From contig OZ038451.1 in NCBI GenBank assembly GCA_964036195.1, forward strand, positions 14,574,529 to 14,638,528: DNA of 64,000 nt. Direction: 5' to 3'. A model generated the notes under the pieces. That model ran no database searches and was not told the DNA's origin. It saw only the letters and a program-made list of their open reading frames with translations. Shown here in pieces: positions 22,952 through 44,566 of this stretch. The translations under genes were made by a program, and so were the position numbers. Position 1 is the first letter of the stretch, and every line of letters begins with the position of its first letter. The DNA comes from Sphaerolaimus hirsutus (Eukaryota; Nematoda; Chromadorea; Monhysterida; Sphaerolaimidae).

Positions 22952-22956
22952 GGTAT
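22952..22956. repeat. Target-site duplication, left (GGTA or GGTAT)
   Basis: GGTAT here is repeated at 43881-43885 right after the 3' LTR. Whether the last T belongs to the duplication or to the LTR cannot be decided because both LTRs begin with T at that point: 4 bp (LTR from 22956) or 5 bp (LTR from 22957). The pre-insertion site was a diverged repeat region. Confidence 0.8.
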
Positions 22957-23181
22957 ATTGTATTGTTGGCGTCTTGCCATAAGATCTATTGTATTGTTGG
23001 CCTTTTGCCATGAACTAAAATATCTGTTGTACTTTGGCTTGTTGCCGTGGTTACTAGGAAGAGTGACGTAGGTTGGTTGGCCCATTTACAATCGGGCAAA
23101 AGGATTACAGTTTTGTTAGGAAAAAAGATGTTTATGTCTGACATGTTGCGTGAGCTAAGCCTACGTGGGCGGGTGGCTGAG

Positions 23182-23189
23182 TATAAAAG
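23182..23189 (+). promoter_or_regulatory. TATA box of the 5' LTR
   Basis: TATAAAAG preceded by GGGCGGG. Initiation is expected about 25-30 bp downstream, near GAGGTATTCAGGG at 23200-23215. The identical box lies at 43439-43446 in the 3' LTR and could drive flanking DNA. Confidence 0.75.
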
Positions 23190-23397
23190 AGAGCCCCGGT
23201 GAGGTATTCAGGGTTCAGAACCGTGATGCAAAATATATCTAAAAGCTAGCTAAGCCAAGCTACAGCTGAAAACAGTAGCTGAAGGTCTGTGTGACAGTGC
23301 TTCGTGAACCTGAATACCGAGCCGGTGCTGTAGGATTCAGTGCCGTGTGATTCAGTATTTCGTGAGTATTTTGTGAAACATTGAAGTATTTACCATC

Positions 23398-23403
23398 AAT
23401 AAA
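23398..23403 (+). promoter_or_regulatory. Polyadenylation signal AATAAA in the LTR
   Basis: AATAAA inside CATCAATAAACAGG, about 210 bp after the TATA box, matching the position expected for the R region. The copy at 43655-43660 in the 3' LTR would end the genomic RNA. A second AATAAA lies about 90 bp further on. Confidence 0.65.
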
Positions 23404-23623
23404 CAGGTGCCAGGCAACGATCGGCTGCGTTGGCTATTCAGTAACTCAGCTCAAACGACATTGAACCCTAACTTCACAAACGTGCGCACAAATAAACATA
23501 CACTAACATCGTATGACATCTGTGAAGCCACCGGGCTCCTTTGTCCTCCTCCTGAAGTTCGTCGTAGTCGAAGTCGTGGACTCGGTTGACTGTAAAGGTT
23601 TGAGTCACAGTTCACATAGAAAA

Positions 23624-23966: not shown

Positions 23967-26900
23967 ATGGTCTTTCCATTGCCGCCCCTAGTACCTGAGC
24001 TGGACGCCGAAGGAAAGCTCGTACTACCTGAGCTCCCTGAGAAGGTGGTGGATGTTAGAACGATGGAAGAGTTGGACGAGCAGATTGATAATATCACCCG
24101 CCAGCAGCAAATTCTGCAAGGCAAAGACTACTCTTTTGAAGACCGGGCGCTGCGTACGCAGTGCCGCGGCTACCTAGCCAGATTGGACGGGTTGCTAGCG
24201 CAACTTAAGGCAGTTAAAAGAACGTTTGCTACAGAAGAAGTTCGCCGCCGCGCTAATGCGCTGCGCAACGATCCTGGCGAGGTGCCAGGGGGTGCGGGAA
24301 ATGGAAATAATGAAGAAAATGACCCAAATAACCCAACGGGAGACCCACCAACCACTGACCCACCTATCCAGCTGTTGACAGTCGCAGATCCGAACGTGGC
24401 TCCGCCCACCGGTGGCATTCCAGTACAGCATGTTGGCGGTGCCCAGCCACCGATGGGAAGGGGGTTGCCTCGCACGCCGCTGCAGCCGGCAAATCCACCA
24501 ACTGGGACAGCACCACGTACACCGCCACCTGCAACGAGCCGTACATCATCAACTGGAGCTGGAGCGTCGACTATTTCTGCGCCAGGTATGGCTGGGGGAG
24601 GTGTTTTTCCCCGCTCAAGTGTGGTAATGGCTGCACCCCGCCGGCGAGCATTTAGTGGTTCTTCTACCGTGCAAAATTTGAACGCACTGACTGCTCAAAA
24701 GGGTTCAAACCAAGTGTTTGGACTTGTGCCAAGTGTACAGAAAGGAACGTCATCCGGCTCAAATGGTTATGGAAGTCAAGGTGGCGCGCCGGGGGTGCCA
24801 TCACCACAAGTGGGCGGAGTTGGGGGAACCTTTTCAAGTGGTAGAGCCTCAAACGTAGCATCAAACCAACAAGGGGGTCCAATTGATCTCGTAAATGATG
24901 CGAGGGGTGGCGAGTGGTACCAAAAGTACATGGACGACCGCGAGCAGACCGTCGAATACTTGCGCAATGCGACCAATCAGCGCCTGCAAAATTTAGAGCT
25001 CAAAATTGCACATGCTAAGCGTGCTGCCATAAATGACAGCGTGAACCCTTATGAATTGGGAGGGGGCAAAGATTCAGTGCTTACAGGACCCTATATAACC
25101 GCGCTTAGTCAGAAATGTTGCGAATATGGGGGGGAGCGGTCTGAAGGCGCCATAAATCCCTCAGTATGGATTAAACAACTTGAGGTGGCCCTGTATTCTT
25201 TGTGTATTCCCAAAAAAAAATGGCCGCTGTGTTTGTCTTTACGCTTAAAAGGGGAACCCCTTAGGTGGCTCGCTGGAGTGGATGACTCCACCCGATCCAA
25301 CTATCAGGAGCTAAAAAGGCAATTTTTGCTGACATATGAAAATACTGAAGTTCAAATGAGAGCTCGAGATGAACTTTCTAGAACCAAACAAATTAAAACC
25401 CAGTCGGTGAAGGAATTTTACCATAATTTAAGGGATATGCATGCGTCTGCTTTTGCACATTTGGATGAAGCAACTAAAGAACGTGATTTTCGAATACTGT
25501 TTGCAAATAGTATCTCCCCCCAATTGCAAATATTTTATAGGACCTTGTCGCCTGCAGAGCAAAACCAACCTTTTCTTACCTTGTTGGAGCGTTTGTCCAC
25601 TTATGAAAGCCAAGTGACGGATACACGTGCACCACCGTCATTTGAGGTTCGCCCCAGTGCACCGGGCGATCAGAATAGGCGGGGCGGCTACGTGCCGCGC
25701 GGCCGATTTGTGATGAATAGGCGGCGGTTTGAAAGGCGCCCATTTAATGACCGCGAAAATGCCTCTGCAAATCGAGCTGATGACCCCCTTAGCCAACTGG
25801 AGCGCCCCACGGAAGTGTTGCAATCTGCGCGCACAGGTCTTAGAACGGAAGAAAATGATTCCGGTTCCAAAAATACAGAAATTGTAAAAAAATTAGATGA
25901 AATTTCTGGTGAGATAAAGAAGGGCACTGAGCGAGTTGATAAATTAGAGTCACAGTTTCGTGACGAATCTTCAGAAATGAGGCGGGCTATTCTCGAAATA
26001 GGTAGAAAATCGGCGGAAAATTTCGCGCAGGGGCGCGGAATGACTTTTCGCAGGGGAGGGGCATCAAATCCAAATTTTCAAGGAAATTCAATGCCCAGAA
26101 ATTTTCAAAATTCGAACCCAAATGGCCCAAATCAAAACCTAAATGCTAGCCTTACTTCGGCCCCCCCTAGTTCGCCCAATTACACGCAACAAAACCAACA
26201 AAATATGCGTGGTGCAGGGTGGTCCACTCAGTATAGGTCCCAGGGGCCCGGCTCAAATATGAGCCAGGGCGCAGGCTCTCCGCGGGCGTGTTATCAATGC
26301 GGCCAGGTGGGGCACTTGGCGCGCTCGTGTACGGCCACGCGCGGGCAAAATAGACCACCTGAGAGGGTAAATCATGTTTATCATTCATTGTCAACTTTGG
26401 CCGCGGGGGTTGCCATGGAAGACAAAAATGAGGGAAATGGGGCGGTAGAGCATCTGTTTTCGATACTCGCTAAACCAGTGAATAAAATTGGAGAAGGGGG
26501 TGGTGTAGAAAACCCCCCGGGGGAAGATTTGCCCCAGAAGTGCAAACTAATTTACAAAGAAATTGAGCAAAAAACGCTCGATAGACCGGGCGGTCAACTT
26601 ACTGCAGTCAACTCACGTCAGGCTGAGTTGACAAAAGCGCGTGCGTTTTGGGTTCCGCACGCAACGCTAAATGCTGCGCCGCTCGGACTGCCGCGGCCAT
26701 TTCTGTGTCCATTTTTCGGCGCCAAATTGATTGCGCGCCCGGCCCGTTGTGCAGATAAGGACGGGAAGATCTGCGAAGGGCAAAAATTGAAAGCGATAAT
26801 ATTAGATAATAAAATGGCACGCGTGCACCCCCGCGAAAATGTGCCGGGCCCAAATAATGACGCGCGGGCTTGTCAATTAGGTTCAAAATTTTGGGTCAGT

Positions 26901-29900
26901 GTGAATCTCTCTGAAGAAGTAGAAAAGAGGCTGAAAATTGCAGAAATTACTGCAAGCGAGCAAACTGTGAAAATGCTTGAAGTTTGCGACAAAAACGGAA
27001 GCGGACAAATTAGGGCCGAAAGCAAACGAAAAATTAGCGCGAATAAGGGATTAGGTATGCGTCACCGGGAGTGTTACGGTAGCGGCCGAGGCGTGTGCGC
27101 CTACAAATGGCGTTTTCGCCATGGAAATCTACCTGTGGGCCATAAAATGCGTGCACTAGGAATGCGGTGGCGGTTGCCGTGGCCGCGCGGCCGCGCGGTG
27201 TGTAAAATGGGGCGTCCGTCTGCGCTGCCTAAGAAACCACAAATGAATGGATCTGCGTGCTTGCCGGCTAACTTTCGACCGCCGGTCTGTACGCACAAAA
27301 GGGGAGGAAAAATCAGACAGATCTTATCTATTTCATATACATTGAACGGCGGGGCAAAAATACCCGTATTCGCAGTGCTCGCATTTTTATATGCTGCGCT
27401 GGGTGCCTGGACTTATCATTCGAGCGTTAAGCATTTTGAAAAGCACAAAATTCTCGAAATAATGGAGCCTAACCCGCAAGGAAACCCGGACCTATTTGAA
27501 CCCCGGCCCGAATCGCCTCCAAACCCTCTTTTGGATCAAATGATCGACGAAGTCGATCGTTTATCGACCATCGACGATTTTGTGCGGTCGCTGAGTCAAG
27601 ATAACCGCCCACCACGCATGGCGCCAGGTGAATTAACGAGCTCTTGCGCGCGCGCGAGTTCGGTAGGTGATACATTCGCGGCGGCGGCGGAAAATGATGG
27701 AAGTTGGCGCAAAATCTGCCGCAAGAGTAGTTTTATTGCCACAGCAGTTATTGAAGTTTTAAGTGGAAACTTATGGCCCCCCCAAGAAATGTGTGATTTT
27801 GTAAAATGGCGGCACTTTTTTGATGAACATTCCTACATGACGTCTTGTTTTGCAGAAGCAGCCGCTGCGGCGGCAGAAAGGGAAGCGGGGGCGGCCGAAA
27901 TTTTGGCCAACCTATTCAACGACGCGCCCGAACAGGTGCGGGCCGAGCACGAGCGCGGTGGCGCGGCGGGTGCCCCAGTGCCGCTGGCAGGTGACCAGCT
28001 GGAGTGGGCTGAGTTGTACGGTGAGTGCAGTAAATCGGAAATGGGTTTGTACTGGCAGTTTTTACGGTGTGGTAAAAATGGGAAGTGTACAGAGGCGCTG
28101 TCGCCGGACATGGTCGACCAGGCGCGCGCCATCACGCCACCCCAGCTGTTGGCGTCGTCCACGCTGGACGCCGGCGTGCTGCTCGCCACGCCCCCCCCGC
28201 CGGTGCACATGCATGTGCCCGCGCAGCAGCGCGAAATGGCTCCAGGTGGGTGTGAGAATGCAAAATGGAGTTTCTTGAAACCTTTTGAACTAGGTTCAGA
28301 TGTGTGTGATGTAGAAATAGGGGGTTTTTCTGCAGGCGCAGTGTCGAGCGACGCGCCTATGCCTGGCCGCACGGCCGAAGGATACCCTACGGAAGGTGCG
28401 CAGACCTCTGCTTACAACCCTAGCTTTAGGCATAAATTGGTTGCAAGTATTGGATTGCGTGTAGGCATCGACGTGGCCGGCACGCAAGCCGCGCTGGGAC
28501 GCGCTGTCGAGCGCTACGAGCAGCAGGCGCGCGGGGCGGCGCCGGTGTCCCAAGGAAGTGAGTTCCAGATAGTTCCTTATGTAAACCAACTTCATAAGGC
28601 ACATCCGGAACTCTCAGGTGCAGCGAGCGAGGGGCGAGACGACTCGCCGGTCGACCAGGTCGACTCGGTGGTCGACTCGGCTTGGAAAGGCGCCCGGGGC
28701 GATGACGGGCGGGTGCCGGTCAGGCGCAGCAAGCGGCCGCAGCGCCCTTCGCGACGGCGCTACGCCTTTGTGGCCATCGAGCCGAGCAGTGAGCCGGCGC
28801 CGGAAGACGCGCCGCAGCCGACAAAGAGTAAGCAAATTTCACATGATAGGTGGTGCGCACTTGTCACTTCGCATGTGTTTTGCGCTAAGTATGGTCCCAA
28901 TTTTGAAATTTCATGCACAAGAAAGATTGAATCCTCAATGAACAACATTAGTCAATTTAACATTTCTTTTGACAGAGTTCTACGTGACATTTTCCACCTG
29001 TGTATGGGTGATTTCCCGCCAAAGTCAAATGTTGAAAAGTACACATTAGTCATGCAAAATCAAATCCTAGATTATTGCAAAAACGCAATAAAATTCCGCT
29101 CAATTGAACACAATTGTAGGGGACACGTGAATGGGACACGTTTCTTAGCGCAAAACACAATCTTATCTGATATGATCTCCAGACAAGAGAGCACGCATTT
29201 TTGTGATTTTTGCGGACACGTGAATGCTGTTTACGCGCCGCTTGAATGGAGATCTGGGCGCGGCGAGGAGGTAATAATGAAAATTGTAAAAGTAATGAAT
29301 CATGGCCACTTATTGCAATTGGCGCACTTAGAGGGGAAATTAGCGTTGGAAAAGCGCCCTGAATATGAGCATAGGCCTGCATGCCGCGTGAAAATTATCA
29401 ATAGGAATAATGTGACTAACTTAAGGGGGCAATTAAGAATGATGATATCATTACCTAATGACCACATAAAATCGAAGTGGGGAAGATTTCATGAATTTAA
29501 CGGCGCATGTTATTTACAAATAAATGACGCAAGCGCACGCTGGTTTCCTATAAAATTAGTTGAGCAAATTGCGACAATGACAGAAATGAAATTGGAGAGT
29601 AGTGACCTTGAGCAAACACAAGATGCCTTTTGCCGTGATTATGAGAGGGAGATTTTCAATTCAAGCATTAAAATTTCTATGTTTTGTGCAAGATCGGAAT
29701 GCAAATTTAAGCATGATTGTGTTTGCTCGATGTGGGTGAAGAATGCTGATGAATACATCGATGGATCGGAAAGACTACTTATAATTTACAAAAGTCGCGA
29801 AAAAAATTGTAAACCCAAAAAATGTGAACCCACACGTAAAACCACCCACCGTTGCAGGCAAGCGGAAAGCGAGTGCGCCGGCGCCCGCGAACAGCAACGG

Positions 29901-32900
29901 CAGCAAGCGCCGCGGCACCAGCACGGCCGCACGCGCGTCCGGCGTGGAGCCCGAGCCCATCTCGGAGGGCACCGCGATCGCCATCGGCGGGATGGCGGCA
30001 CAGGAATTGACGGTGCAGGCCAAGGCGCGTCACAAATTGGCTGCGCAGATAACAGGTGTGAAAGTTGTGATTGTGGATGTTTTCGAGGACTTGAGGGTGG
30101 TTTTGCAGGACTTGAGGGCGGTTCCATCCTAAATTTGCCCCTTTTCTGCGCCCTAGTAACATCTGGAGCGGGTCAAAGGCAAAACGTAAGCACTACTGTT
30201 GTCACCAACGCCCCCTATACTCCTGAGTGGAGCACTTTTCCATTTACTGTCCCTGTGAACACACGAGGCAAAATTACCCCTTTCAAGATAGTGGATATAC
30301 ATCGTTGTGTAGTCGTGAACAGCAGTTTTACCCCAAAAAATATAATTTTGCCTTGGGTTAAGATACTTACTACCGCGAAACCACACTCAAGGCCTTCTGT
30401 ACAGTTTTGGCACTTTTCCAATATCATAAAATTATTTTGTGAGAAATGTCACTTTAGCCCCGGTACTGAAATCTCATTTTGCATTTTTTATCCTGTTAAT
30501 AAAAAATCAGCGTCGAAATGGTGTGGTATTGATTTACCTATTATATGTGTACTAACCCCCTCGCATTGTCCGTCCATTTATCAAAATGTCCGGCCCACAA
30601 GTGTCGACTGCAACCACGTGCAACAATCAAACCAATTAAGCTACCAAACTAACCGAATTTTATTAAGGCCCCATGTTGAATTAGCAAATGATAGTCTGGT
30701 CCAAATTTGTGCGTGCTTCGGTAAAGTTAGCATTAAAATGGGTTCGCAGCGGAGTTCGCGAACGTTTTTGCCAGGGTGGAAATATCTAAAAATTGAACCA
30801 AAATGTGAATTTGAACCAAAATGTGAATGTGAAAATGAAAAATTTGAATTTCACGAAAGTCTGAGAATGAGTGAACAAAAATGTTTAAACATTTTGGAAA
30901 ACTACCAAAGGGGCAAAAAAATAAATCTACGAGGGGGTTTGGAGAGCGTGGGAATGTTAGAAAAGCGCGGCTTTGAAAGTTTTGGAATTGTAAAGTCTTC
31001 ACGCAAAACTAGGAAACAATGTTTATCGTTAAAGTTGGATACACGTGAAACCTTAAGTAGTTCGCCTGAAACCGAAACTAGGCCTGAAACATCTAGCAAG
31101 GCGACCTCTGACCTAGGAACATTAGTAGCGCGAACAAATGACAAAAGTTGGCAAGATGCTTGCTCTCCGGACACTCACAAGCATCACGGCGGTCGCATGG
31201 ACTCGATCAGTACTGAGCTCGGTGGCAAAAATGTGCTGGGGACACTTGTTCACGTGTTGGGGCATTTTTCTGCATTCCTAGGTTGCGGTTTCAGTGCCGC
31301 AAACAGCATTTATCGATTCCAGTTGGCAAGTCGCCAAATTTGGGGTAACGGCACACTTGTACCAAAAATCCGGGAAAAACAAAATTACGCTCATATGACG
31401 TTAAGTGTGGCTGAAAATGGCTCGCAAAAGGAAATGGGGATACAAATTGAGAAAGGCGGTCATAATTTTAGAGGAAAAAATAGTTTGAATGAAAACGGAA
31501 GTGTGTTTAGGAACGTGGGAAGTGCGTGCGCCGCTGGGCTCAATATTGATGGGATCTGCGGGGGCAAATTTAAGGGAACCCCACAGTTGTATCTAAGGCA
31601 GGAAAATGCCTGTTTCTCGTGTAAAATGGTGAAATACGCCGTTCGGAAGGCTTGTGAGAGTCAAGTGAGTGGGAAGAAATGCGAAAATGAGTATTGTGAA
31701 CTCAGGGGAAGTAAAAGGATGGAAATGCAAATTTTCGGAAGTATATCCTGGTGTGCATGTGAATGTGGACCGACTTTTGAAATGACTCATAAGTCCTTGA
31801 AATGGATGATTATTGCGAAATCGATGGTAATTGCTGGCAAACTTGCAGATGCACCTACCACGTCTGCTCACCAACCGGTTGAGGAGGACGTGGGTGAGCA
31901 GCCAGTTGAAACTAGGCCGGGTCTATCTGACGACGGGTCTGATGCCGAGCAGCGAGAGCGCACGGCTCCCGCCCGATATCCACTCATAGTGCAGCCAAAT
32001 CGCACAGCGCCGCCCCGCATGGAGCCGACTGGCGTCGAGAATAACCTGAATTATGAGGCAGAATATGGCCACCACAAATGTGAGTATCGTAAGAAGGTGG
32101 ATCTGAGCATTTTGAGTAGAATATGTATCACAGTGTTTAGTAAAGGGGGTGCGTGTGAATTTGAGAAAAATACTAGAGTGTTTTTTGCAGCGATTCGAGT
32201 GCCGCTGCGCCCCGGGCAGACAATTTGCCACATTTTTGACTCTCCAGTGCCCATTTTTCGGCACGTGGTGGGGCTGCCGCTGGAGTATTACCAGGCAACC
32301 TATTTTCCATTGGCATGTTTGCTGGGCGGCTGCAGCACTAACAAGATCAGGCTGGCCTCTGGCGACATTGATGTCACTGTGCCGCATGTGACATATGGAA
32401 ATCTACCATTCAAGGATTTTTCTATCAATTTTATGCATGCGAGGCACCGCCTGTGCCACACAGTGGGCGCCGATTGCTACTGGTGGGGCGTGAATCTGAT
32501 GGTGGCCTCGGCAATGGGAAATGACCATCTAATCAGAGACTTACTGTTGAGGCCACCGGTGGTGATGGGCCGCATTCCTATGGTGTGTACTGAGCACCAG
32601 TACTTCTTCCTGGTCAAGCCCAAGGACATCATGGACCGGGTGCCCGGATCGGGAGTGATGTGCTTCACGTATTTGGATTGTGTGGAGCACCTGACGATGA
32701 GCCACTCGTTGAAGATGACACCAGTCACGGTGATGGCTGTGGTGGAGACACTTTTGAGTGAGTTTGAGCATTGCGAGGGGGCTGATTGGATTTTTGCCAG
32801 TCTTAGGAAAGATGAAAAAATTTGCAGTTTTGTCAATTTGTGTAAAATGATGAGCGCTATTTGTTTTGCAGGAGTGATACGCAGCGAGATTGTGCCGAAA

Positions 32901-35141
32901 GAGGTAACCAGGCTGGTGTCCAGGGAAAGGGTGGAAAGGTGTGCCTGCAACATGGCGTTGGCGCTGCGCTGGCGCGCTAGCCGCTCGCTGTTGCTGGCAG
33001 TTCACAACAAACACCCTATCAACATCAGCAAGATGACCTTTGGCGTGACGGTGGAACAACTGCGTGTGCTGGCCACCGAGAACAAGGTCGTCAGGGTTGT
33101 CAGCACGCCCGAGGGGGACCAATTCATGCTCAAATCGAGGCAGCAGACGTACGTGGACCCACTCATGCCAGATGGGCAGAATAAACAGAAGCCCTGCCAA
33201 GAAAATTTGGTAGGTGTGGTTTTGGTTTTGATGATTTTACTGCTGAGTGGATTTAGGAGTAGGGCGATCCGGTTATTGGGTGTGGCTCTGTTAATTAGGC
33301 AAGTCGCGGCGGACCCTATGTTGCTTCAAATTTGTTCCAAACCTACAGGGGCTTGGTATTTAGATTTACCCGAAATACCCACGTGTAATTTGTACAGTTC
33401 AACGTTATTTGGTGAGTCTGAACTGTCACCAGTTCATGATGTGTCAGTGTCAGTGTATGCACAGAGGCGTCGCCCTGTGACAGCGAATGCCACCTTTTGT
33501 CAAGCCAGACGTCACGAGGTGACGACATGCACAAATGCTTTATTTGCACATTATATTTATGAATATCATGATAGTTATGTACCAATGCCGATTGAGAAGT
33601 GTGCAGAAATGTTTCACGCGGTGCGTGACGGTCACGCGCGTAAGTCGGGCTTGAAACAGATTGAACCGATGGTCTGGTCAACCATGAAAAGCATTGATCT
33701 GCAATTCCCTACGTGGAATGATTGTTTTAAGCAGCATGTTGATAATTTCATTTTGACACAGGGAACTGTGGCCACATTTGACAATCAGCAACTTATTACG
33801 GACATGGATGCCGCACCTACTTGTAGCCCAGCTGCTGGGCGCTGCACCAGCAGCAGGGGGGTGTTGTTCTGGGAGCCGACTACGTTAGCACCGGCTTCCT
33901 GCCCCTTTGAGCATGTAGGAAACTTTCCTGGGAAAAGACAGAATGAAACGGTCATTTTGATTCATGAACAAAGTGCTTTTACGATAAAAGGTGGCCCGGT
34001 GCACATACAATGCCTGGAGCCAGCAGTATATTTGACAGATCAGGGTCCGCTACTGTCCATTTTGCAAATAGACAATTCATCAACTGAAAGTATGTGTCAA
34101 ATCATGTTTAAGAAGTGTGCATCGACAGTGAAAATGACATTTGCTGAGTTTTGGAGTGGAAATCTGACTCCAAACGCAGCTACACAGCACCAGTTTATGT
34201 ACCAGGTGTTGACACAGCAAGCCCATCAGAATTTTGAGACCCTAAGACATCAGATTTGTGTGTTGGCGCGCAGCAATGCACTAATGGTGCGGGCGCTGGC
34301 TCATATCTCGCCTGTGGCCGCAGCAAGATTATTGCTTGCTGATGAAAGCATAAATGCTGAATACGCCGGTGACGTGCTTTCAGTCACAGCGTGTCATAAA
34401 GTTCAACCTGATAGACTTTATATGTCCCATAAGGTGAATGGAATCTGTTATGATATGATGCCGGTAAGAGTACATGGGAAGCTTCTATTCAAAATACCAG
34501 GATCTCAGGACCTGGTGGAGCATGCAAATCAGTTGCCTTGCTCTCAATTGCAATCACCTGTATTTAAGTCCCAAAATGGAACCTACTTAGCTCTGACCAA
34601 TGGGAATATGGTGAAGGTAAACATGCACCATACCCCAGCCTTTGTACATCCAAAGTTTCTGTCAGATGGAATCAAATTCAATCGAACCTTGATTCGGCCC
34701 GGAATGGTCATGGAAAATGCCATGATGTATGCAAACATACGTAGTTTGCACATGCGACGGGTTGAGGCACGGGAAAAATTGGATAGGCTAATTCATTACA
34801 CTAGCCTGTTTTCTATTGATAGCGCCCATACTGCAAGTATGCTGCATGGGCGGGGACTGGAGCACATGGTGACTCACGCGGGTGAGCTGCTGTTGAATGC
34901 ATCGGGTCGCGTAATTGACCATGAGTTTGATGTGGTTCACATGATCACTACTAGTGCTGTTCCGAAAGCCATCAGGGGACCATTCCAATTAGTGTTGAAC
35001 ATTCTGTGGGTGATTTTCATTACATTATTGATAATGGGGCTTATTTATCTGTGTGTGCGTTATGAAGGTTTTCGTAGTGCGGTAATTACTGCATGTAAAT
35101 GGCCCGTAAGGATAGTAAGAATAGGGATGGTTTGGGTGTGA
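23967..35141 (+). CDS. Giant polyprotein frame: Gag - X - envelope-like glycoprotein (3,724 codons)
   Basis: One uninterrupted frame from ATG 23967 to TGA 35139-35141. Residues 1-90 are coiled-coil-like and 90-310 are low-complexity Pro/Gly/Ser. Residues about 318-550 form a capsid-like region of retrotransposon Gag type (VWIKQLEVALYSL, EPLRWLAGV). A CCHC knuckle, C-x2-C-x4-H-x4-C, lies at residues 775-788 (26289-26330). After about residue 820 no Gag feature remains; 26.4-33.2 kb is the X region, where accessory exons alternate with intron-like DNA that is all open in this frame. Residues about 3082-3724 are Env-like. Gag alone would normally be freed by proteolysis or made from RNA spliced downstream of it; I see no stop after Gag. 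The Pol frame follows in phase after the UGA. The start is the first ATG after the leader. Confidence 0.85.
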   Translation: MVFPLPPLVPELDAEGKLVLPELPEKVVDVRTMEELDEQIDNITRQQQILQGKDYSFEDRALRTQCRGYLARLDGLLAQLKAVKRTFATEEVRRRANALRNDPGEVPGGAGNGNNEENDPNNPTGDPPTTDPPIQLLTVADPNVAPPTGGIPVQHVGGAQPPMGRGLPRTPLQPANPPTGTAPRTPPPATSRTSSTGAGASTISAPGMAGGGVFPRSSVVMAAPRRRAFSGSSTVQNLNALTAQKGSNQVFGLVPSVQKGTSSGSNGYGSQGGAPGVPSPQVGGVGGTFSSGRASNVASNQQGGPIDLVNDARGGEWYQKYMDDREQTVEYLRNATNQRLQNLELKIAHAKRAAINDSVNPYELGGGKDSVLTGPYITALSQKCCEYGGERSEGAINPSVWIKQLEVALYSLCIPKKKWPLCLSLRLKGEPLRWLAGVDDSTRSNYQELKRQFLLTYENTEVQMRARDELSRTKQIKTQSVKEFYHNLRDMHASAFAHLDEATKERDFRILFANSISPQLQIFYRTLSPAEQNQPFLTLLERLSTYESQVTDTRAPPSFEVRPSAPGDQNRRGGYVPRGRFVMNRRRFERRPFNDRENASANRADDPLSQLERPTEVLQSARTGLRTEENDSGSKNTEIVKKLDEISGEIKKGTERVDKLESQFRDESSEMRRAILEIGRKSAENFAQGRGMTFRRGGASNPNFQGNSMPRNFQNSNPNGPNQNLNASLTSAPPSSPNYTQQNQQNMRGAGWSTQYRSQGPGSNMSQGAGSPRACYQCGQVGHLARSCTATRGQNRPPERVNHVYHSLSTLAAGVAMEDKNEGNGAVEHLFSILAKPVNKIGEGGGVENPPGEDLPQKCKLIYKEIEQKTLDRPGGQLTAVNSRQAELTKARAFWVPHATLNAAPLGLPRPFLCPFFGAKLIARPARCADKDGKICEGQKLKAIILDNKMARVHPRENVPGPNNDARACQLGSKFWVSVNLSEEVEKRLKIAEITASEQTVKMLEVCDKNGSGQIRAESKRKISANKGLGMRHRECYGSGRGVCAYKWRFRHGNLPVGHKMRALGMRWRLPWPRGRAVCKMGRPSALPKKPQMNGSACLPANFRPPVCTHKRGGKIRQILSISYTLNGGAKIPVFAVLAFLYAALGAWTYHSSVKHFEKHKILEIMEPNPQGNPDLFEPRPESPPNPLLDQMIDEVDRLSTIDDFVRSLSQDNRPPRMAPGELTSSCARASSVGDTFAAAAENDGSWRKICRKSSFIATAVIEVLSGNLWPPQEMCDFVKWRHFFDEHSYMTSCFAEAAAAAAEREAGAAEILANLFNDAPEQVRAEHERGGAAGAPVPLAGDQLEWAELYGECSKSEMGLYWQFLRCGKNGKCTEALSPDMVDQARAITPPQLLASSTLDAGVLLATPPPPVHMHVPAQQREMAPGGCENAKWSFLKPFELGSDVCDVEIGGFSAGAVSSDAPMPGRTAEGYPTEGAQTSAYNPSFRHKLVASIGLRVGIDVAGTQAALGRAVERYEQQARGAAPVSQGSEFQIVPYVNQLHKAHPELSGAASEGRDDSPVDQVDSVVDSAWKGARGDDGRVPVRRSKRPQRPSRRRYAFVAIEPSSEPAPEDAPQPTKSKQISHDRWCALVTSHVFCAKYGPNFEISCTRKIESSMNNISQFNISFDRVLRDIFHLCMGDFPPKSNVEKYTLVMQNQILDYCKNAIKFRSIEHNCRGHVNGTRFLAQNTILSDMISRQESTHFCDFCGHVNAVYAPLEWRSGRGEEVIMKIVKVMNHGHLLQLAHLEGKLALEKRPEYEHRPACRVKIINRNNVTNLRGQLRMMISLPNDHIKSKWGRFHEFNGACYLQINDASARWFPIKLVEQIATMTEMKLESSDLEQTQDAFCRDYEREIFNSSIKISMFCARSECKFKHDCVCSMWVKNADEYIDGSERLLIIYKSREKNCKPKKCEPTRKTTHRCRQAESECAGAREQQRQQAPRHQHGRTRVRRGARAHLGGHRDRHRRDGGTGIDGAGQGASQIGCADNRCESCDCGCFRGLEGGFAGLEGGSILNLPLFCALVTSGAGQRQNVSTTVVTNAPYTPEWSTFPFTVPVNTRGKITPFKIVDIHRCVVVNSSFTPKNIILPWVKILTTAKPHSRPSVQFWHFSNIIKLFCEKCHFSPGTEISFCIFYPVNKKSASKWCGIDLPIICVLTPSHCPSIYQNVRPTSVDCNHVQQSNQLSYQTNRILLRPHVELANDSLVQICACFGKVSIKMGSQRSSRTFLPGWKYLKIEPKCEFEPKCECENEKFEFHESLRMSEQKCLNILENYQRGKKINLRGGLESVGMLEKRGFESFGIVKSSRKTRKQCLSLKLDTRETLSSSPETETRPETSSKATSDLGTLVARTNDKSWQDACSPDTHKHHGGRMDSISTELGGKNVLGTLVHVLGHFSAFLGCGFSAANSIYRFQLASRQIWGNGTLVPKIREKQNYAHMTLSVAENGSQKEMGIQIEKGGHNFRGKNSLNENGSVFRNVGSACAAGLNIDGICGGKFKGTPQLYLRQENACFSCKMVKYAVRKACESQVSGKKCENEYCELRGSKRMEMQIFGSISWCACECGPTFEMTHKSLKWMIIAKSMVIAGKLADAPTTSAHQPVEEDVGEQPVETRPGLSDDGSDAEQRERTAPARYPLIVQPNRTAPPRMEPTGVENNLNYEAEYGHHKCEYRKKVDLSILSRICITVFSKGGACEFEKNTRVFFAAIRVPLRPGQTICHIFDSPVPIFRHVVGLPLEYYQATYFPLACLLGGCSTNKIRLASGDIDVTVPHVTYGNLPFKDFSINFMHARHRLCHTVGADCYWWGVNLMVASAMGNDHLIRDLLLRPPVVMGRIPMVCTEHQYFFLVKPKDIMDRVPGSGVMCFTYLDCVEHLTMSHSLKMTPVTVMAVVETLLSEFEHCEGADWIFASLRKDEKICSFVNLCKMMSAICFAGVIRSEIVPKEVTRLVSRERVERCACNMALALRWRASRSLLLAVHNKHPINISKMTFGVTVEQLRVLATENKVVRVVSTPEGDQFMLKSRQQTYVDPLMPDGQNKQKPCQENLVGVVLVLMILLLSGFRSRAIRLLGVALLIRQVAADPMLLQICSKPTGAWYLDLPEIPTCNLYSSTLFGESELSPVHDVSVSVYAQRRRPVTANATFCQARRHEVTTCTNALFAHYIYEYHDSYVPMPIEKCAEMFHAVRDGHARKSGLKQIEPMVWSTMKSIDLQFPTWNDCFKQHVDNFILTQGTVATFDNQQLITDMDAAPTCSPAAGRCTSSRGVLFWEPTTLAPASCPFEHVGNFPGKRQNETVILIHEQSAFTIKGGPVHIQCLEPAVYLTDQGPLLSILQIDNSSTESMCQIMFKKCASTVKMTFAEFWSGNLTPNAATQHQFMYQVLTQQAHQNFETLRHQICVLARSNALMVRALAHISPVAAARLLLADESINAEYAGDVLSVTACHKVQPDRLYMSHKVNGICYDMMPVRVHGKLLFKIPGSQDLVEHANQLPCSQLQSPVFKSQNGTYLALTNGNMVKVNMHHTPAFVHPKFLSDGIKFNRTLIRPGMVMENAMMYANIRSLHMRRVEAREKLDRLIHYTSLFSIDSAHTASMLHGRGLEHMVTHAGELLLNASGRVIDHEFDVVHMITTSAVPKAIRGPFQLVLNILWVIFITLLIMGLIYLCVRYEGFRSAVITACKWPVRIVRIGMVWV
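26289..26330 (+). other. CCHC zinc knuckle of Gag nucleocapsid
   Basis: Encodes CYQCGQVGHLARSC, a perfect C-x2-C-x4-H-x4-C knuckle (residues 775-788 of the giant frame). In retroelements this domain binds genomic RNA. It is preceded by a Gln/Asn/Gly/Ser-rich linker and followed by the unassigned X region. Confidence 0.95.
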
Positions 35142-38100
35142 CGCCAGTATGCAATGCATGTGACAAATTCTGGTGTAGGTAGTGATCAACAGAAGCCAGA
35201 TGCTTTTGGTGACAGACCGGAAGTGGACAGGCCAAATACGCTTGACCTGCCTATTCGATATGTGAGTGGAAGTGGCTATTCTGGAAATAGGGTCCGTATA
35301 CCTAGGGTGCGTCTGGGGCCACAGTTGCTGCGCACCTTAAAGCAGACTAGAGAGGAAAATGACTTTGACGAACAAATTCAATCTGAGGTGGTGGCGTCTA
35401 TGCGCGTGCGAGCACCGCGACAAGTTCCCTTTCTAGTGTTGCTGGCGCTTGCATTAATTGTTACGCCTGTTGATTGTGTATTTACCTGGAGGGGTGTAAC
35501 ACATGAAGCACGCTTTTGGGGCAGTGTGGTTGATTGGTGTGAGTGTGTTATGGTTGTGTGCGCGTTGTTCAGCGTGTGCATGTGGAATGTGTTGAACAAG
35601 CCTTTGACACCGAGGCCTGTGTGGATGAGCAGCAGCGAACAAATGAGTGAATGTTTAAGCACATTAAGCATGTTGCCGCCAAAATGTGAGCCATTGTCTC
35701 AGATTGAGAAATGGCCGCTCGATAAGTTTGGGGTCGGGGTGTTTGAAACAGAACCTGACTTTTCTCTGCGTGCTAGGGTGCTGAGCTGTGTGCCATCCCT
35801 GTCTGGATTCCTACAGTTTTCGGTCAAAGCAAGAATTGTTTTGGAAAGAAATATGGCTGTATGGATAGGCTTTGAGGGGAACATGTGGGAAAGGAAGTTA
35901 GGGCAAATTCAAGATCTATTGAAAGGTAGGAAAAGGAGGTGTGTGCAAGGCAGTGGCGCAAAAGCGCCCAGGTTTAAGAATAAGGCGGTTCATGAGCGGA
36001 AGGGCCGTACAAATGAGTTGCACGGTCGCATGCACATGATTTTTGCAACGACCACTGTGCATCAGTTAAATTCTCTGCCCATGACTGGTCATTTGGCTGC
36101 TGCAGGCACAGGAGTGGTTTTGAGTGCCCATGGAATGATAAGGGACATAGAAGTGCACTGTATAATAGATACAGGGGCGTCTATGTCATGTCTGAATAAA
36201 AGGCTGCTTGACAAGTTGAAGATTCCCTACAAAAGCACACAAATTACCATTACGGTGGCAGATGGCGCTGATATGGTGCCGATCGGCACGTGCGATGTGC
36301 AACTTGCTATAGATGGCACATTGTTCAATGTGCATGCTCTGGTGTTGGAAGGAATTACCAGTGATGTGTATATCGGTTTCAAAACTTTGAAACAGTGGGG
36401 AGACTTTCAAGTCACCTTCTATCGAGGAAATGACAATAAAAACTTGGACATGGGAGAGATAAAATTTATTACGGGGAAGAAAATACGTTTTAATGTGCCT
36501 AAGGGCCGGGGAGTGAATCATGTTATGGTCATGCACACAAAAGAGCGTGTGAAATTAAAGCCTCTTAGTGTCACATCTGTGTCTATTTATGCGCCTGATG
36601 TGACTCAGGAATTTCTGACAATGGTTCTGAGGGACAGAAAACTGGAACGGAATTATGTGTGTGCTCCGATAGATAAGATGATGAGAGTTCACCGTATAAA
36701 AATCTATCCCACACTGGTTGACTTGAAGCGTCATTTTGATGAGGAACGTAAGAGCTTTGTTTTGTCTGGCTCGGTTCCAGTGTTCAATCCAAATAGGAGT
36801 GACATCACGGTGCCCAGTGATAGGCCCGTGGTGAAGATCACTCAGCTGGGGGGAATCATGCACAGGGCACTGGGAATGGTGCCGGAAAAGCAAATTTTGA
36901 TTTCGGCGCCATCAAAGCCCAGTAGTTTAGGGGATCAAGAGACGCCAGTGTATATTACTGGTCATACTACCAAAAGGGGTACACAAGTCCCCGTGTTGCT
37001 CACGCCGCAATATGGAAGTGAATTTAAGAAATTAGTGATGACTGGCGATGAATGCCAGCAGCGCTTGGGTGAGTGGTTAGATTGTTTGCAATCAATACAC
37101 CCAGAAGCCAAGCTGTCTTCGATGATATTGAATGAAGTAAGTATGGCTCAAGTTTTCCCAGAATCTATAGCGGCGATGTCAGACAACGCCGGAAAAGCGA
37201 GATTGACAGAATTGAAAAGGGCAGCAGAGGTGGCTAGAAGAGATTCACCTAATGCAGTGGCTACGGTGACTGTGCGAGAGAATTATGAAGATGATAACAG
37301 GTTGAACTTACCGAATTTGGCTAAGCCCATGGTGCCGCAACTTAGTTTGGAAGAAAGACATGAGATAATTAAGCGAGATGCAAATTTCAAGGACACAGTT
37401 TTGAATGAACAACAAAAACAGGAGTTCATGGAAATGTTATTACGTTATCATGACGTTTTCGTGTTAGAGTTGGCAAACAGGAGTTCCTGTAGTGCCCTGG
37501 TTGCCGACATTCGGCTGAAAGATGAAAACCACCCTGGTTTTCAATCACGTCCGTATCCCATCAGTTTTTTTGAAGAAAAAATTCTCGATCACTGGCTAGT
37601 AAGGCAAATATCCCTGGGATTAGCAGAGTTTGGAGTAAGCCGTTTTTCGAGTCCTGTGTTTCTAGTACGAAAGCCTACTGCAGAGCCGGAAAAGATACCG
37701 TCGATAAAAAATTGGCGTACAGTGTTTGACTTGAGAAAAATCAATTCGCTCTGTCGTTTAGAGCAAGGAAATGTAACACCCCTCAAACAGCTATTAGAAA
37801 AACTTTTATTGGGCGTGGTATGGTCCACCTTTGATGGGTTGTCCGCCTATGACATGATAAAATTGTCTGAAAATAGTAAAGATTTGTTCGCAATTTCTAC
37901 TGCGCGTGGTGTTTTAAAATTTAATTCTTTACCCCAGGGGTCCTCATCGAGTACATCTATATTTTCTCTCGCCATGACCGTAATCTTTTGGAACAGTCGA
38001 AAAACTCTAACGTACGTAGATGACGTGTGCACTGTGTCCGACAAGGTGGAGGACCATGTGCATGACGTAGAGGACGCTTTGAAGCGTTTTGCCCACTACA

Positions 38101-41100
38101 GATTTCGCATTTCACTCAAAAAAACAGTTTTTGCCGCTAGACGTGTAAAAATGTTAGGACAATATATAAGCAGGGAAGGTAGGGAAATGGACAAGGAAAA
38201 AGTGGAGGCAATTTGTAAATTGCCCCCACCAAAGGACAAGACTGGGGTGCGCAGTTTCCTAGGGATGGCAAACTGGCACCGGAGTTGGATTAAGGATTTT
38301 GCACTTCACACGAGACATCTAAATAAGTTGTTAACTGGAAAAGATAATCAACCTTTTGTGTGGAATGAGAATGCACAGGAGGAATGGCAATGGTTGAAGG
38401 ACCAGCTGGTGAAGGCGCCAATTTTGGCAGCACCAGACTATAATAAAGGTTTTGAATTGAGAACTGATGGGTCTAAAAGGGGGATTTCTGGTATTTTGTC
38501 GCAAAAATCTGACAAAAATAGACACAATGTAATTGGGTACTATTCTAGGGTGTTGTCCAAGCAGGAACAACGCATGGCCAGTTATGATTTTGAAATGCTT
38601 GCCATTGTGTCTTCCTTAATTCACTGGCGCAGCATTATTTACTGTTATAAAGTTGAAGTGCATACTGACTGTGCGGCTGCATGTTATCTGTTGAGAGACA
38701 AGCACGCACAGAACCCTAGGGTAGCTAGGTGGTCATTGGCAATTAGTTCTTTTCCGGGGGTTACAATAAAATATACCCCTGGTAAAACCAACCCAGCAGA
38801 TGTGTTGTCTAGGGAATTTTCAGCTGAAGATGTGTCATGTCAACCAGAAATGGTGCCAGACCCGTCTGAGGCGATTCTGAATGATGACCGCATGGAAATC
38901 TGCGGGGAAGATTGTGGTGATTCATGTGAATTGCAGCAAACAGTTAAGGATCATGTGCAGAAGCATCTCTTGCAAGTGATGCAAACGAGAAGTAGGGCCA
39001 AAGTTGTAAATGCAAGTGTGACTGCAGTTCCTGCAACACACAATCAGAGTGATGCGCAAAATAGTGCGACTCCAGCCGCTGCAATAAGAGTAGTGACCCC
39101 AAATGTTGTGGTGACAAATGATCAGGGAATTAGTCATTCTCTGGTCATCCCAAATGATCCAGAGATGGATCAGACGCCAGATCAAATCGCTAGAAGCCAA
39201 ATTCCGAGTGCGTCTGATTATGACAAGGAAAACTTTTCTGATTTTTTGGAAGAAGATGGGATTGTACAGAAGTTCCGGGACGGACAGATTTCAGACGAGT
39301 TCTGTGCCGCCATGAAGGAATTTTTGGTGCATGGAAATTTGCCAGTAAACTCTACCTTGGCAAGGAGGGTGGTTCTGGCGGCACAGCAATATGTTTTGGA
39401 AGATGATCTTTTGTATTACTTTGACAAAAGGAAACCTGGTTTGGAGCCAGCATTATTGCTGTATGTGCCTAGAGACATGCGTCGTGCAGTGATGGCTTTG
39501 CATCATGCATCTGGTTGGGGAGCACACCAGGGTGCATTGAGAACTTACCAGCGATTGTTGCATTGTTTTTATTGGCACAATGCCTATAACGATGTAGTTG
39601 AATATATTAGGAAATGTGCAAAGTGTTTTGCACACAAGGGACAAACTGGTCAGGTGGTTTCGCCACACGGCCAATTACCACAAGCTGACAAACCTTTTGA
39701 TGTTTTATATTTTGACATTTCTAATGTTATGCATTACAGTGCAACATGTCAGTACAAGGCCGTGGTGACAGCCATTTGCCCCTTTTCTAGTTATCCATTT
39801 GCTGCGCCTCTGTCGGACATGCGCACGATCACTATTGCACAGGCATTAATGACTCATGTTTTTTCATTTACTGGGTTTCCCAGAGTCTGCATCAGTGATC
39901 ACGGTGCCAATTTGATGGCACTGCGGGAATGCTTCAAGTTTTTGCGTGTGGGTCACAGAAATGTGCTACTTGCAAACCCACAGTCAAATAAAGTTGAAAA
40001 TTGGCATCGTTTCAAGACTTCATTGGGGATAATGATTACACAGTATGCTAGAAGTCATGAAAATTGGGATGAGACCTTGCCCATGCTCATGCTGGCTCTT
40101 CGAACCAGTCACTCAGCGAGCATCGGCATGAGCGCTTTTGAAGTAGTTTTTGGACACCGGCCAAATCTATTTTTCTTACCTGACGCTTTGAGTCGGCCCA
40201 GTTTAGCTTTGAGAACCAGTGAGTCAGCTATTGGCTTTGTTAGAGAATCTATTTATCAGGCATGGAAAACCGCAATTAAAAATAAACTAGAATATGAACA
40301 GACTACGGCTAAGCAGGTTGAGTTAGAGAAAAATAAGTTGCAAGTGGGTGACGCTGTTTATGTGAGACAAGTATTTGTGCCAAAGGTTGGCCAGACCAGT
40401 AAGTTTTTGCCAAAACTTTTGGGACCATTGGTGGTTCGCAAAGTCTTGAATAGTGCTGCCTATGTGGGTGCAATAGGCGAGCCGGATCGCCCTGCGCAGC
40501 TTATTCCTTTTAGGCGCATTTGTAAGGTTGTTGGAGATGCTGAAGCTAAGAAAATGAAGAAAAGTGAAGTTTTGAATTGTATGAGAAGTAAAGAAATAAT
40601 TTCTAAATTTCCAGCCCTTCACCGCGCTGGCAGTGACTCAGGCAGTGCCGATCCAGGTCACTCAAGATGGAGCCCTGGTGGGTATGGTGGAATGCCATCG
40701 CTGGCCTGCTTTGTCAGACAGAATGATAGAGATGCATCATTGTGTTCACAAGTACGAGGTGCCCTACTTGAAGAGGGTGTGGCTGCGTGTGAGAGGTGGA
40801 GTGATGCACTTCGCAGTGGGAGTGCGCCCGTTCCTGACAGAGTGGCACGATCGCAGCACCCACTGGCCGGTGGCCAGCAGCGAGGTTTTCGAACCGTCCA
40901 ATTTGCTGTTCAGAATGCCCACGGTGAACTTGGACCCGAGGCATACGCAATTTGGGCAAGTGATGAATGTGGGTGCACCGGCTCCCGGCACCAGTGCTGG
41001 CCGGCAGGAGCTGTTAATGCATCCATGGCCATCTGAGGGTCTGGCCTGTGATGAAATAGATAGGGAGGTGCCGCCAATCAGGGCGCAGCCTCTGGGCACA

Positions 41101-43212: not shown

Positions 43213-43880
43213 TATTGTATTGTTGGCGTCTTGCCATAAGATCTATTGTATTGTTGGCCTTTTGCCATGAACTAAAATATCTGTTGTACTTTGGCTTGTT
43301 GCCGTGGTTACTAGGAAGAGTGACGTAGGTTGGTTGGCCCATTTACAATCGGGCAAAAGGATTACAGTTTTGTTAGGAAAAAAGATGTTTATGTCTGACA
43401 TGTTGCGTGAGCTAAGCCTACGTGGGCGGGTGGCTGAGTATAAAAGAGAGCCCCGGTGAGGTATTCAGGGTTCAGAACCGTGATGCGAAATATATCTAAA
43501 AGCTAGCTAAGCCAAGCTACAGCTGAAAACAGTAGCTGAAGGTCTGTGTGACAGTGCTTCGTGAACCTGAATACCGAGCCGGTGCTGTAGGATTCAGTGC
43601 CGTGTGATTCAGTATTTCGTGAGTATTTTGTGAAACATTGAAGTATTTACCATCAATAAACAGGTGCCAGGCAACGATCGGCTGCGTTGGCTATTCAGTA
43701 ACTCAGCTCAAACGACATTGAACCCTAACTTCACAAACGTGCGCACAAATAAACATACACTAACATCGTATGACATCTGTGAAGCCACCGGGCTCCTTTG
43801 TCCTCCTCCTGAAGTTCGTCGTAGTCGAAGTCGTGGACTCGGTTGACTGTAAAGGTTTGAGTCACAGTTCACATAGAAAA
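43213..43880 (+). repeat. 3' LTR
   Basis: 668 bp, the same ends as the 5' LTR and one visible mismatch. TATA box at 43439-43446 and AATAAA at 43655-43660. Followed by GGTAT, the target duplication. Confidence 0.93.
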
Positions 43881-43885
43881 GGTAT
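43881..43885. repeat. Target-site duplication, right (GGTA or GGTAT)
   Basis: GGTAT repeats 22952-22956. Together with the LTR pair it fixes the outer limits of the element. Confidence 0.8.
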
Positions 43886-44280: not shown

Positions 44281-44566
44281 CACAGGTTGGTTATCATTAT
44301 ATTCTAAGATACAGAAATTGAAATTCTGATGCAAAAAGTGCAACAATATCAATTAAAAGATTCCCCATGCTACTTGACATGGTAGACCCGGTGACCAGAG
44401 AAGTAAAAGCCAATAAAAAACAGGTATTCTCACTGTCACTGTTGAGCAAGAAAACTTCTTGATTTCCATTATTTGACCATTTTCGTGTTTTTGGAGGCAA
44501 TACAAGTTATTGAAAGTGAAGTAAATAGTACTTCGTCTCACCTGTGTCATTATAGGCAATATCATT

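What the first reader, a model, noticed from the sequence alone, without database searches (positions are those of the whole stretch)
27462..33209. A multi-exon gene hidden inside an LTR retroelement, with introns that stay open in the Gag frame
Ten GC-rich exon-like blocks (E1-E10) are bounded by GT-AG signals. All nine introns between them split codons in phase 1, and E2-E9 all have lengths divisible by three. Introns 1-5, 8 and 9 (228, 72, 90, 69, 60, 111, 114 nt) are multiples of three. The intron-like DNA, about 3.6 kb in total, contains no stop in the polyprotein frame, which is not expected by chance. So unspliced RNA can be translated straight through, while splicing yields a different, compact protein. 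I know of no retroelement described with a many-exon gene of this kind.
Basis: partly seen in the sequence, partly recalled or inferred. Interest (0 to 1): 0.93.

Follow-up and report, generated by a model that had tools for sequence, protein, structure and literature searches.

The report
Retroelement introns kept free of stops
A giant virus-like mobile element carries a gene split into about eleven pieces, and in its intact copies the DNA between the pieces changes freely except that it gains no stop signal and does not shift the reading frame, so the same RNA can apparently be read either spliced or straight through.

Summary
In detail: nine GT-AG, phase-1 introns at the stated junctions, no stop in the Gag frame against 83 and 131 in the other frames. 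Copies in the same genome show that the introns are real: GT..AG throughout 18 aligned copies, and for intron I2 (absent in family B) and Ix (absent in family A) the predicted junction residue matches the intronless family. Exons evolve as protein (pooled pN/pS 0.05-0.24), E7 only in its spliced, non-Gag frame. Introns show no amino-acid constraint (0.70; control frames 0.72, 0.83) yet stay open; 156 of 161 keep length class and have no stop. The stop before pol is a nonsense codon of this copy and L009; six of seven family-A copies followed have one gag-env-pol frame of about 5,700 codons, and 27 of 60 copies have 5,000 or more. The gene runs past 33209 through a chuvirus-type Env to an out-of-frame exon at 40615-41139. 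Closest known: Cer1/CERV and Burro. No RNA data: translation of the unspliced frame is inferred.

The parts
22956..23623 (+). 5' LTR (668 nt); target duplication GGTA at 22952-22955 and 43881-43884 (one base ambiguous: LTR could be 669 nt with GTA)
   Evidence: one mismatch with the 3' LTR in the first 650 positions
23967..26483 (+). Gag (PF03732 at about 25236-25484, zf-CCHC at about 26283-26333)
   Evidence: pN/pS 0-0.33 in 150-nt windows to 26483
26484..27375 (+). Spacer in the Gag frame: open; pN/pS 0.59-0.86 in 26484-26933; the part 27060-27420 is very conserved at the DNA level in family A
   Evidence: candidate splice acceptor ending at 27375 (score 9.2)
27462..27627 (+). Exon E1 (ATG at 27462; may extend upstream)
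27628..27855 (+). Intron I1, 228 nt, open in Gag frame
27856..28020 (+). Exon E2
28021..28092 (+). Intron I2, 72 nt; absent in family B
28093..28245 (+). Exon E3
28246..28335 (+). Intron I3, 90 nt
28336..28395 (+). Exon E4
28396..28464 (+). Intron I4, 69 nt, end-to-end hairpin with paired changes between families
28465..28557 (+). Exon E5
28558..28617 (+). Intron I5, 60 nt, end-to-end hairpin closing both splice sites (z -6.5)
28618..28827 (+). Exon E6, with a basic motif (RRSKRPQRPSRRR), similar by eye in family B
   Evidence: NLS or RNA-binding role inferred
28828..29857 (+). Intron I6, 1030 nt (1 mod 3 in every intact copy); conserved island 29055-29369
29858..30055 (+). Exon E7, read in a frame other than Gag (KRK...KRR motif)
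   Evidence: pN/pS 0.24 in spliced frame, 2.72 in Gag frame; weak match, also out of frame, in family B
30056..31848 (+). Intron I7, 1793 nt (2 mod 3 in every intact copy)
31849..32079 (+). Exon E8
32080..32190 (+). Intron I8, 111 nt
32191..32757 (+). Exon E9, domain without known relatives; at the equivalent of 32538 it is split by intron Ix in five of six family-B copies read, and by inserts at that place in groups C-G (coordinates only)
32758..32871 (+). Intron I9, 114 nt
32872..35423 (+). Exon E10: end of the E9 domain, signal-peptide-like stretch (about 33200-33330) and transmembrane segment (both by eye), chuvirus/gB-like fusion glycoprotein (PF24664 at about 34146-34601); donor at 35423 is the best but unproven choice
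35139..35141 (+). In-frame nonsense codon of this copy, shared with L009, not present in the ten other aligned family-A copies
35424..40614 (+). Intron 10 (5191 nt) holding Pol in the Gag frame: PR about 36132-36380, RT about 37704-38165, RNase H about 38361-38660, integrase about 39465-39950
40615..41139 (+). Exon E11 (stop at 41137-41139), in frame +1 relative to Pol, overlapping the open end of the Pol frame (to 41036)
   Evidence: pN 0-0.015 and pS 0.11-0.22 in frame 1; about 75% identical in two family-B copies
43213..43880 (+). 3' LTR

Best explanation
This is a young, about 20.9-kb Ty3/gypsy-type retroelement with a captured chuvirus-like (gB-type) envelope. Its RNA is decoded in two ways. 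(1) Spliced RNA: about 10 introns are removed, the last one taking out all of pol, to give an 11-exon mRNA for a long leader (E1 to early E10, basic motifs in E6 and E7) fused to Env. (2) Unspliced genomic RNA: ribosomes starting at gag read through the env exons and all introns in one frame into pol, giving a Gag-spacer-Env-Pol polyprotein of about 5,700 codons. Pol lies downstream in the Gag frame, so any stop or frameshift in an intron would abolish it; hence introns are selected only to stay open and keep their length class modulo 3, while their amino-acid content drifts. Shown from sequence: introns and their boundaries, protein selection on exons, openness selection without amino-acid selection in introns, a single frame in many copies. 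Inferred: that unspliced RNA is translated end to end and cleaved. More tentative: that the leader, by analogy with Cer1 CERV and MMTV Rem, helps unspliced RNA escape splicing or leave the nucleus, and that hairpin introns I4 and I5 slow splicing.
For: GT..AG in 161 of 161 introns of 18 copies (12 of family A including the window, 6 of B); the 18 introns of the window and of L024 were chosen by their GT and AG, so 143 of 143 are free of that choice; fixed length class and no frame-0 stop in 156 of 161. I2 is absent in B and Ix in A, and the predicted junction residue equals the residue of the intronless family (E, seen in five B copies; D, junction read in L024). Pooled pN/pS over 11 non-independent pairs: 0.16 (E1-E6), 0.05 (E8-E9), 0.06 (E10); E7 0.24 in spliced frame against 2.72 in Gag frame; introns 0.70. 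Control frames of the same introns 0.72 and 0.83; stop differences 0 against 585 and 826. Uninterrupted gag-to-pol frame in 6 of the 7 family-A copies followed by pieces beyond the window; frames of 5,000 codons or more in 27 of 60 copies in seven groups, E9 protein identity 38-100%. Both E9 halves lie in one frame in 42 of 42 copies with a split E9, with nine insert lengths. E11 and E7 are two exons in other frames, over which the Gag-Pol frame is merely open. Cer1 precedent: unspliced RNA without a stop between gag and pol, plus spliced cerv mRNA (PMC10309623, PMC3315495; passages).
Against: No RNA or protein data; no junction was seen in a transcript. Copies used were chosen for intact introns; of 12 aligned family-A copies only 6 are open through E1-E10, and both family-B copies followed by pieces change frame in gag, one of them also after env. 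E7 was found by genome search only in family A (15 matches); its match in B is weak (E 2e-5 to 0.002). The leader donor that would start the spliced mRNA was not found (best leader score 5.3), and the E10 donor is weak in family A. The splice scores were trained on the same sites, and 22 of its 30 top donors are not exon ends. A polyprotein with over a thousand unselected residues is costly. In-frame signals for a direct gag-to-pol splice exist (26366 and 35703). The region 35400-36149 (pN/pS 0.18-0.38) and the island 29055-29369 (0.39) show some amino-acid constraint, so not all spacer is empty.
Confidence: 0.75

Rival explanations
1. Pol is made from an alternatively spliced gag-to-pol RNA; the introns are open only because unspliced genomic RNA would otherwise be destroyed by nonsense-mediated decay.
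For: Donor-like site at 26366 and acceptor-like site at 35703 are both phase 0 and present in 7 of 7 family-A rows; the GT of the donor is also kept in the family-B pieces. The Cer1 authors discuss the absence of stops as protection from NMD (PMC10309623, passage).
Against: The two sites are ordinary in score: 22 of the 30 top donors are not exon ends. No matching acceptor was established in family B (not a systematic test). NMD alone does not demand that pol be in the Gag frame, yet it is in all 6 open copies.
Confidence: 0.2
2. No splicing: one polyprotein with conserved protein blocks separated by fast-evolving linkers.
For: Everything but E7 and E11 can be read in one frame.
Against: E7 and E11 are under protein selection in other frames; borders are GT..AG in 161 of 161; two introns are absent in other families with matching junction residues; linkers show about the same pN/pS as their own control frames.
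Confidence: 0.03
3. The introns are former coding spacers of a polyprotein that later became spliced; openness is inherited rather than maintained.
For: Most introns are multiples of 3 and in one frame.
Against: Between the window and one family-B copy, synonymous divergence is about 1 or more and intron peptides align at only 22-38%, yet family B is as open. Stops would have built up: 24 expected even at the within-family distance.
Confidence: 0.03
4. Introns encode conserved functional peptides of the polyprotein.
For: pN/pS 0.39 in the island 29055-29369; 0.18-0.38 in the pol-proximal linker.
Against: pN/pS over all introns is about that of the control frames; intron peptides of the window and a family-B copy align at 22-38% identity.
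Confidence: 0.06

Closest known systems
Cer1 of C. elegans with its spliced cerv gene (PMC10309623, PMC3315495; passages read)
   Same: Ty3/gypsy element; one open frame over gag and pol with no stop between; a spliced multi-exon mRNA made from the same RNA; exons 1-3 and 5 in the polyprotein frame and exon 4 in its own frame; splice sites that must be skipped to make genomic RNA.
   Different: Cer1 is 8.8 kb with 5 exons and an ORF that does not resemble Env proteins; that ORF lies after pol. Here about 11 exons carry a gB-like Env and lie mainly between gag and pol, the introns are mostly non-conserved filler held open, and introns were lost or gained between families. Sequence homology to CERV was not shown (searches found nothing).
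Burro giant gypsy elements of planarians (PMC6431247; section 7 and passages read)
   Same: Giant gypsy-like element; env in frame between gag and pol in one ORF of about 5,000 codons; env like mononegavirus fusion glycoproteins.
   Different: No introns, splicing or stop-free neutral spacer are described in what I read; Burro carries BIR, ankyrin, BCL2, MATH and dUTPase-like domains, none of which Pfam found here.
Retrotransposons with captured Jingchuvirales (chuvirus) glycoproteins (PMC7642597, PMC10084718; search listing and abstract starts only)
   Same: Envelope of the chuvirus group in a retroelement (PF24664 here).
   Different: Not described, as far as the listing shows, as a multi-exon gene between gag and pol.
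MMTV Rem / Env signal peptide (PMC2661877, PMC8725593; abstract starts only)
   Same: An Env-derived leader acting as a Rev-like RNA export factor is the working analogy for E1-E10.
   Different: No homology shown; function here is a guess from basic motifs.

Membership tests
Ty3/gypsy (Metaviridae) LTR retroelement | LTRs, short target duplication, Gag with CCHC, order PR-RT-RNaseH-INT (list of features recalled) | tested here: met
Endogenous retrovirus-like element with chuvirus/gB-type Env | gB-like fusion glycoprotein with transmembrane segment | tested here: met
   PF24664 E 3.6e-13; PF00606 E 1.6e-8 but below its cut-off; weak PDB gB matches, best E 0.008; transmembrane segment by eye only
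Cer1-like elements | Single gag-pol frame plus a spliced multi-exon gene with an exon in another frame | tested here: met
   by sequence only, no RNA
Cer1-like elements | CERV homologue | tested here: inconclusive
   protein search with E9-E10 start found nothing at E<=1; Cer1 sequence itself not at hand
Burro-like elements | env in frame between gag and pol in one giant ORF | tested here: met
   for other copies; the window copy carries a nonsense codon
Burro-like elements | BIR/ANK/BCL2/MATH domains and dUTPase-like domain between PR and RT | tested here: not met
   no such Pfam family at E<=1 in pieces over the coding region; profile-profile search as used for Burro was not run
Rev/Rem/CERV-type RNA export regulators | Binding to and nuclear export of unspliced RNA | not testable with these tools
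   only basic motifs in E6 and E7

The most novel reading that the evidence does not exclude
These are spliceosomal introns whose only conserved property, in most of their length, is that they can be translated: selection keeps them stop-free and frame-neutral because the unspliced genomic RNA is read as one Gag-Env-Pol polyprotein of up to about 6,800 codons, while splicing the same RNA yields an 11-exon leader-Env protein. Giant 'humongous polyproteins' of other elements such as Burro would then be, in part, read-through of introns rather than real protein domains.
Probability: 0.6. Interest if true: 0.9.

Novelty: new variant of a known kind. Interest (0 to 1): 0.84.

Why it matters
It gives a clean natural case of selection on introns for translatability alone, separated from amino-acid content by control frames within the same introns. 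It shows how a retroelement can carry a many-intron gene on an RNA that must also survive unspliced, and it offers a testable re-reading of giant polyprotein retroelements. It also makes the question of how intron-bearing genomic RNA escapes splicing and decay testable in a new system, with two candidate hairpin introns and a conserved intronic island.

Tried and rejected
Chance openness: rejected. Intron peptides conserved as protein: rejected for most intron DNA. Conserved blocks without splicing: rejected. First idea that the stop at 35139-35141 separates gag-env from pol by read-through: rejected, since ten other aligned copies have no stop there. Relatives in public collections: one scan of viral contigs gave none; protein searches with Env (E<=0.001) and with E9-E10 (E<=1) gave none; Pol gave 39 distant relatives at 20-33% identity. 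Structure of the E9-E10 stretch from a single sequence: pLDDT 35, discarded. Rfam: no match. Island 29055-29369 as a stable RNA fold: not supported (z -1.0). I5 covariation: no pair, one pair in the prediction. Donor 35306 for E10: high score but GT not kept in family B. Troyka elements (PMC12440569): outline and abstract seen only, not pursued. Host species: not identified.

Full report
What was checked. The window holds one LTR retroelement, LTRs at 22956-23623 and 43213-43880 with one mismatch in the first 650 positions and a GGTA (or GTA) target duplication. Pfam finds Gag, zinc knuckle, a Monjiviricetes fusion glycoprotein, protease, RT, RNase H and integrase, in the order gag - env - pol.

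Copies. The genome holding the window (348 Mb, unnamed) has many relatives: 61 DNA matches to E9 and 103 protein matches that I grouped into 60 copies (the tool says such counts are lower bounds). By E9 identity and match position these fall into seven groups: A 15 copies (including the window), B 22, C 9, D 5, E 2, F 2, G 4, and one unplaced. I fetched pieces of 14 close copies (L009-L022) and six family-B copies (L023-L028) and further gag and pol pieces of 9 of these 20. Twelve family-A copies (the window and 11) and six family-B copies could be aligned over the gene; three close copies (L015, L019, L022) were only partly alignable and were dropped.

Introns are real. In family A, exons are 86-100% identical to the window and most introns fall lower in the divergent copies, for example I9 70-74% in the six copies L013, L014, L016, L018, L020 and L021, whose E9 is 93-98%; I4 and I5 are exceptions at 90-100%. 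All 161 introns scored in 18 copies are GT..AG; those of the window and of L024 were picked by that rule, the other 143 were placed by alignment. Family B has no I2: the codon predicted to span the I2 junction in the window is Glu, and the five family-B copies printed read Tyr-Glu-Pro-Met contiguously. Five of six family-B copies have an 87-nt intron Ix in E9: the codon predicted across it in L024 is Asp, and the window reads Arg-Asp-Leu contiguously. So intron-bearing and intronless families act as natural cDNA for each other. L023 also lacks Ix.

Spliced protein is selected. Pooled pN/pS over 11 pairs (not independent; L018 left out for E3 and I7) is 0.16 for E1-E6, 0.05 for E8-E9 and 0.06 for E10. 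E7 gives 0.24 in the spliced frame and 2.72 in the Gag frame. In family B E7 is again out of frame, but the match is weak (E 2e-5 to 0.002; E3, E5 and E6 are weak too), and a genome search with E7 found family A only (15 matches). Downstream, 40615-41139 shows pN 0-0.015 and pS 0.11-0.22 in frame 1 and the reverse in most of the Pol frame there, so it is an eleventh exon lying over the open end of the Pol frame; it is about 75% identical in two family-B copies, again in the +1 frame. The E10 donor is best placed at 35423: within family A amino-acid conservation drops after about 35430 and the GT is kept in B, but in A the site is weak, and A and B stay similar for some residues beyond.

Introns are selected only for openness. 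Over 15 pairs of six of the 12 family-A copies, chosen for intact introns, pN/pS in introns is 0.70 in the Gag frame and 0.72 and 0.83 in the two other frames of the same DNA, so there is no sign of amino-acid constraint overall; stops that differ between copies number 0 of 17,589, 585 of 17,310 and 826 of 17,310. Counting all copies: 156 of 161 introns keep length class and have no stop; the five exceptions are in L011, L017, L018 (one intron each) and L025 (two, one of them balanced by an indel in E1). Breaks in exons are about as frequent in the same 12 family-A copies: the nonsense codon of the window and L009, an indel in E10 of L012, one in E3 of L018 and a 753-nt insert in E9 of L017. 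Intron lengths differ widely (I7 1502-1655 in B, 1787-1814 in A copies with an intact I7) but, the exceptions apart, by multiples of three; I6 is 1 mod 3 and I7 is 2 mod 3 in the intact copies of both families, which keeps E7 out of frame. Between the window and one family-B copy synonymous divergence is about 1 or more and intron peptides align at only 22-38%, yet both are open.

One frame from gag to pol. In six of seven family-A copies followed by pieces, a single frame runs from gag to the end of pol, for example 5,702 codons in the copy at C3:24817575-24834680; L018 is broken. Both family-B copies followed (L024, L026) change frame in gag, L026 also after env; L024 is then open for 5,104 codons. 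The window copy, like L009, has a nonsense codon at 35139-35141; intact copies exist. Over the 60 copies, 27 have a frame of 5,000 to 6,806 codons through E9 (from the frame lengths): A 6 of 15, B 8 of 22, C 4 of 9, D 3 of 5, E 2 of 2, F 1 of 2, G 3 of 4, unplaced 0 of 1. The two halves of E9 lie in one frame in 42 of 42 copies with a split E9, with inserts of 75 to 207 nt.

RNA features. I5 folds end to end (z -6.5, 0 of 200 shuffles) and I4 likewise (z -1.7, 14 of 200); of the other introns folded only I2 was notable (z -2.4), and I6, I7 and the end of I1 were not folded. I4 keeps its stem in both families: five pairs changed on both sides, a number that 281 of 500 shuffles reach, while the count of such cells (25 against 10.9) and the covariation score exceed all 500 and all slid versions; four of 20 pairs are open in one family, and it is one A-to-B contrast, not five events. 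I5 gives no covariation because it hardly varies. I6 has an island at 29055-29369 at 93-97% identity with neighbouring windows at 71-85%; I7 has a few windows as high. The island is partly alignable to B at 70-75% and is not a strong fold. These are candidates for signals that act only in unspliced RNA.

Reading. The most economical account is dual decoding: spliced RNA for a leader-Env protein, unspliced RNA for a Gag-Env-Pol polyprotein, with introns constrained only by the second use. That ribosomes really traverse the introns is an inference from the constraint; protection of genomic RNA from decay could add to it or, in rival 1, replace it. The leader of E1 to early E10 has basic motifs in E6 and E7 that recur by eye in family B; a Rev/Rem/CERV-like role is a guess.

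Known relatives. Cer1 (passages of PMC10309623 and PMC3315495 read, section 6 of the former) has the same logic: no stop between gag and pol, a spliced five-exon cerv mRNA, one exon in a unique frame. Burro (section 7 of PMC6431247 read) has env in frame between gag and pol in a 4,873-5,140-aa ORF; introns or splicing of Burro are not mentioned in that section or in the passages found. Searches listed no paper that, by title or abstract start, describes stop-free neutral introns in a retroelement; several lists were cut (for example 20 of 245, 15 of 42, 12 of 50 and 12 of 2,803 shown), only open-access papers are held, and Grohme et al. 2018 was not read.

Limits. No transcript data; host unnamed; pairs of copies are not independent and copies recombine (L012 looks like a mosaic); conclusions on groups C-G rest on coordinates and frame lengths, not on letters; splice scores were trained on the same sites.

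Noticed in passing
window 29055-29369: Island inside intron I6 at 93-97% identity among family-A copies, neighbouring windows 71-85%; partly alignable to family B. Candidate packaging or export signal of unspliced RNA.
   Followed up: partly
window 27060-27420: Very conserved at all codon positions in family A just upstream of E1 (pS about 0.02-0.08), beyond what protein coding explains.
   Followed up: partly
window 35400-35600: ATG at 35400 followed by a signal-peptide-like stretch and a second hydrophobic segment between Env and protease (by eye); similar stretches in family B. Possible extra membrane spans of the polyprotein or a further small protein.
   Followed up: partly
window 22956-23623 and 43213-43880: LTR ends read TA...AA rather than the usual TG...CA; the last base is ambiguous with the target duplication.
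   Followed up: no
L017, inside E9: A 753-nt insert in E9 of one family-A copy; nature not examined.
   Followed up: no
L043 about 2467-2488; L045 about 2480-2555: The two family-B gag pieces fetched both change frame at about the same place before the zinc knuckle, in L043 near a run of G; mutation, assembly error or frameshifting not distinguished.
   Followed up: partly
window about 2664-4705 and 4882-6914: Two copies of a block of about 2.2 kb with near-identical long ORFs, probably a recent tandem duplication.
   Followed up: no
window 21393-22635 and 44551-44733, also near 12312, 58507, 59606: Many copies of a GGCGCC-rich palindromic repeat on both sides of the element and elsewhere in the window.
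   Followed up: no
window 49968-50351: Array of about ten 39-nt units, open in three frames.
   Followed up: no
P0025 (Trichogramma protein): A wasp protein with RT, RNase H and PF24664 domains, perhaps another gypsy-type element with a chuvirus-like envelope.
   Followed up: no
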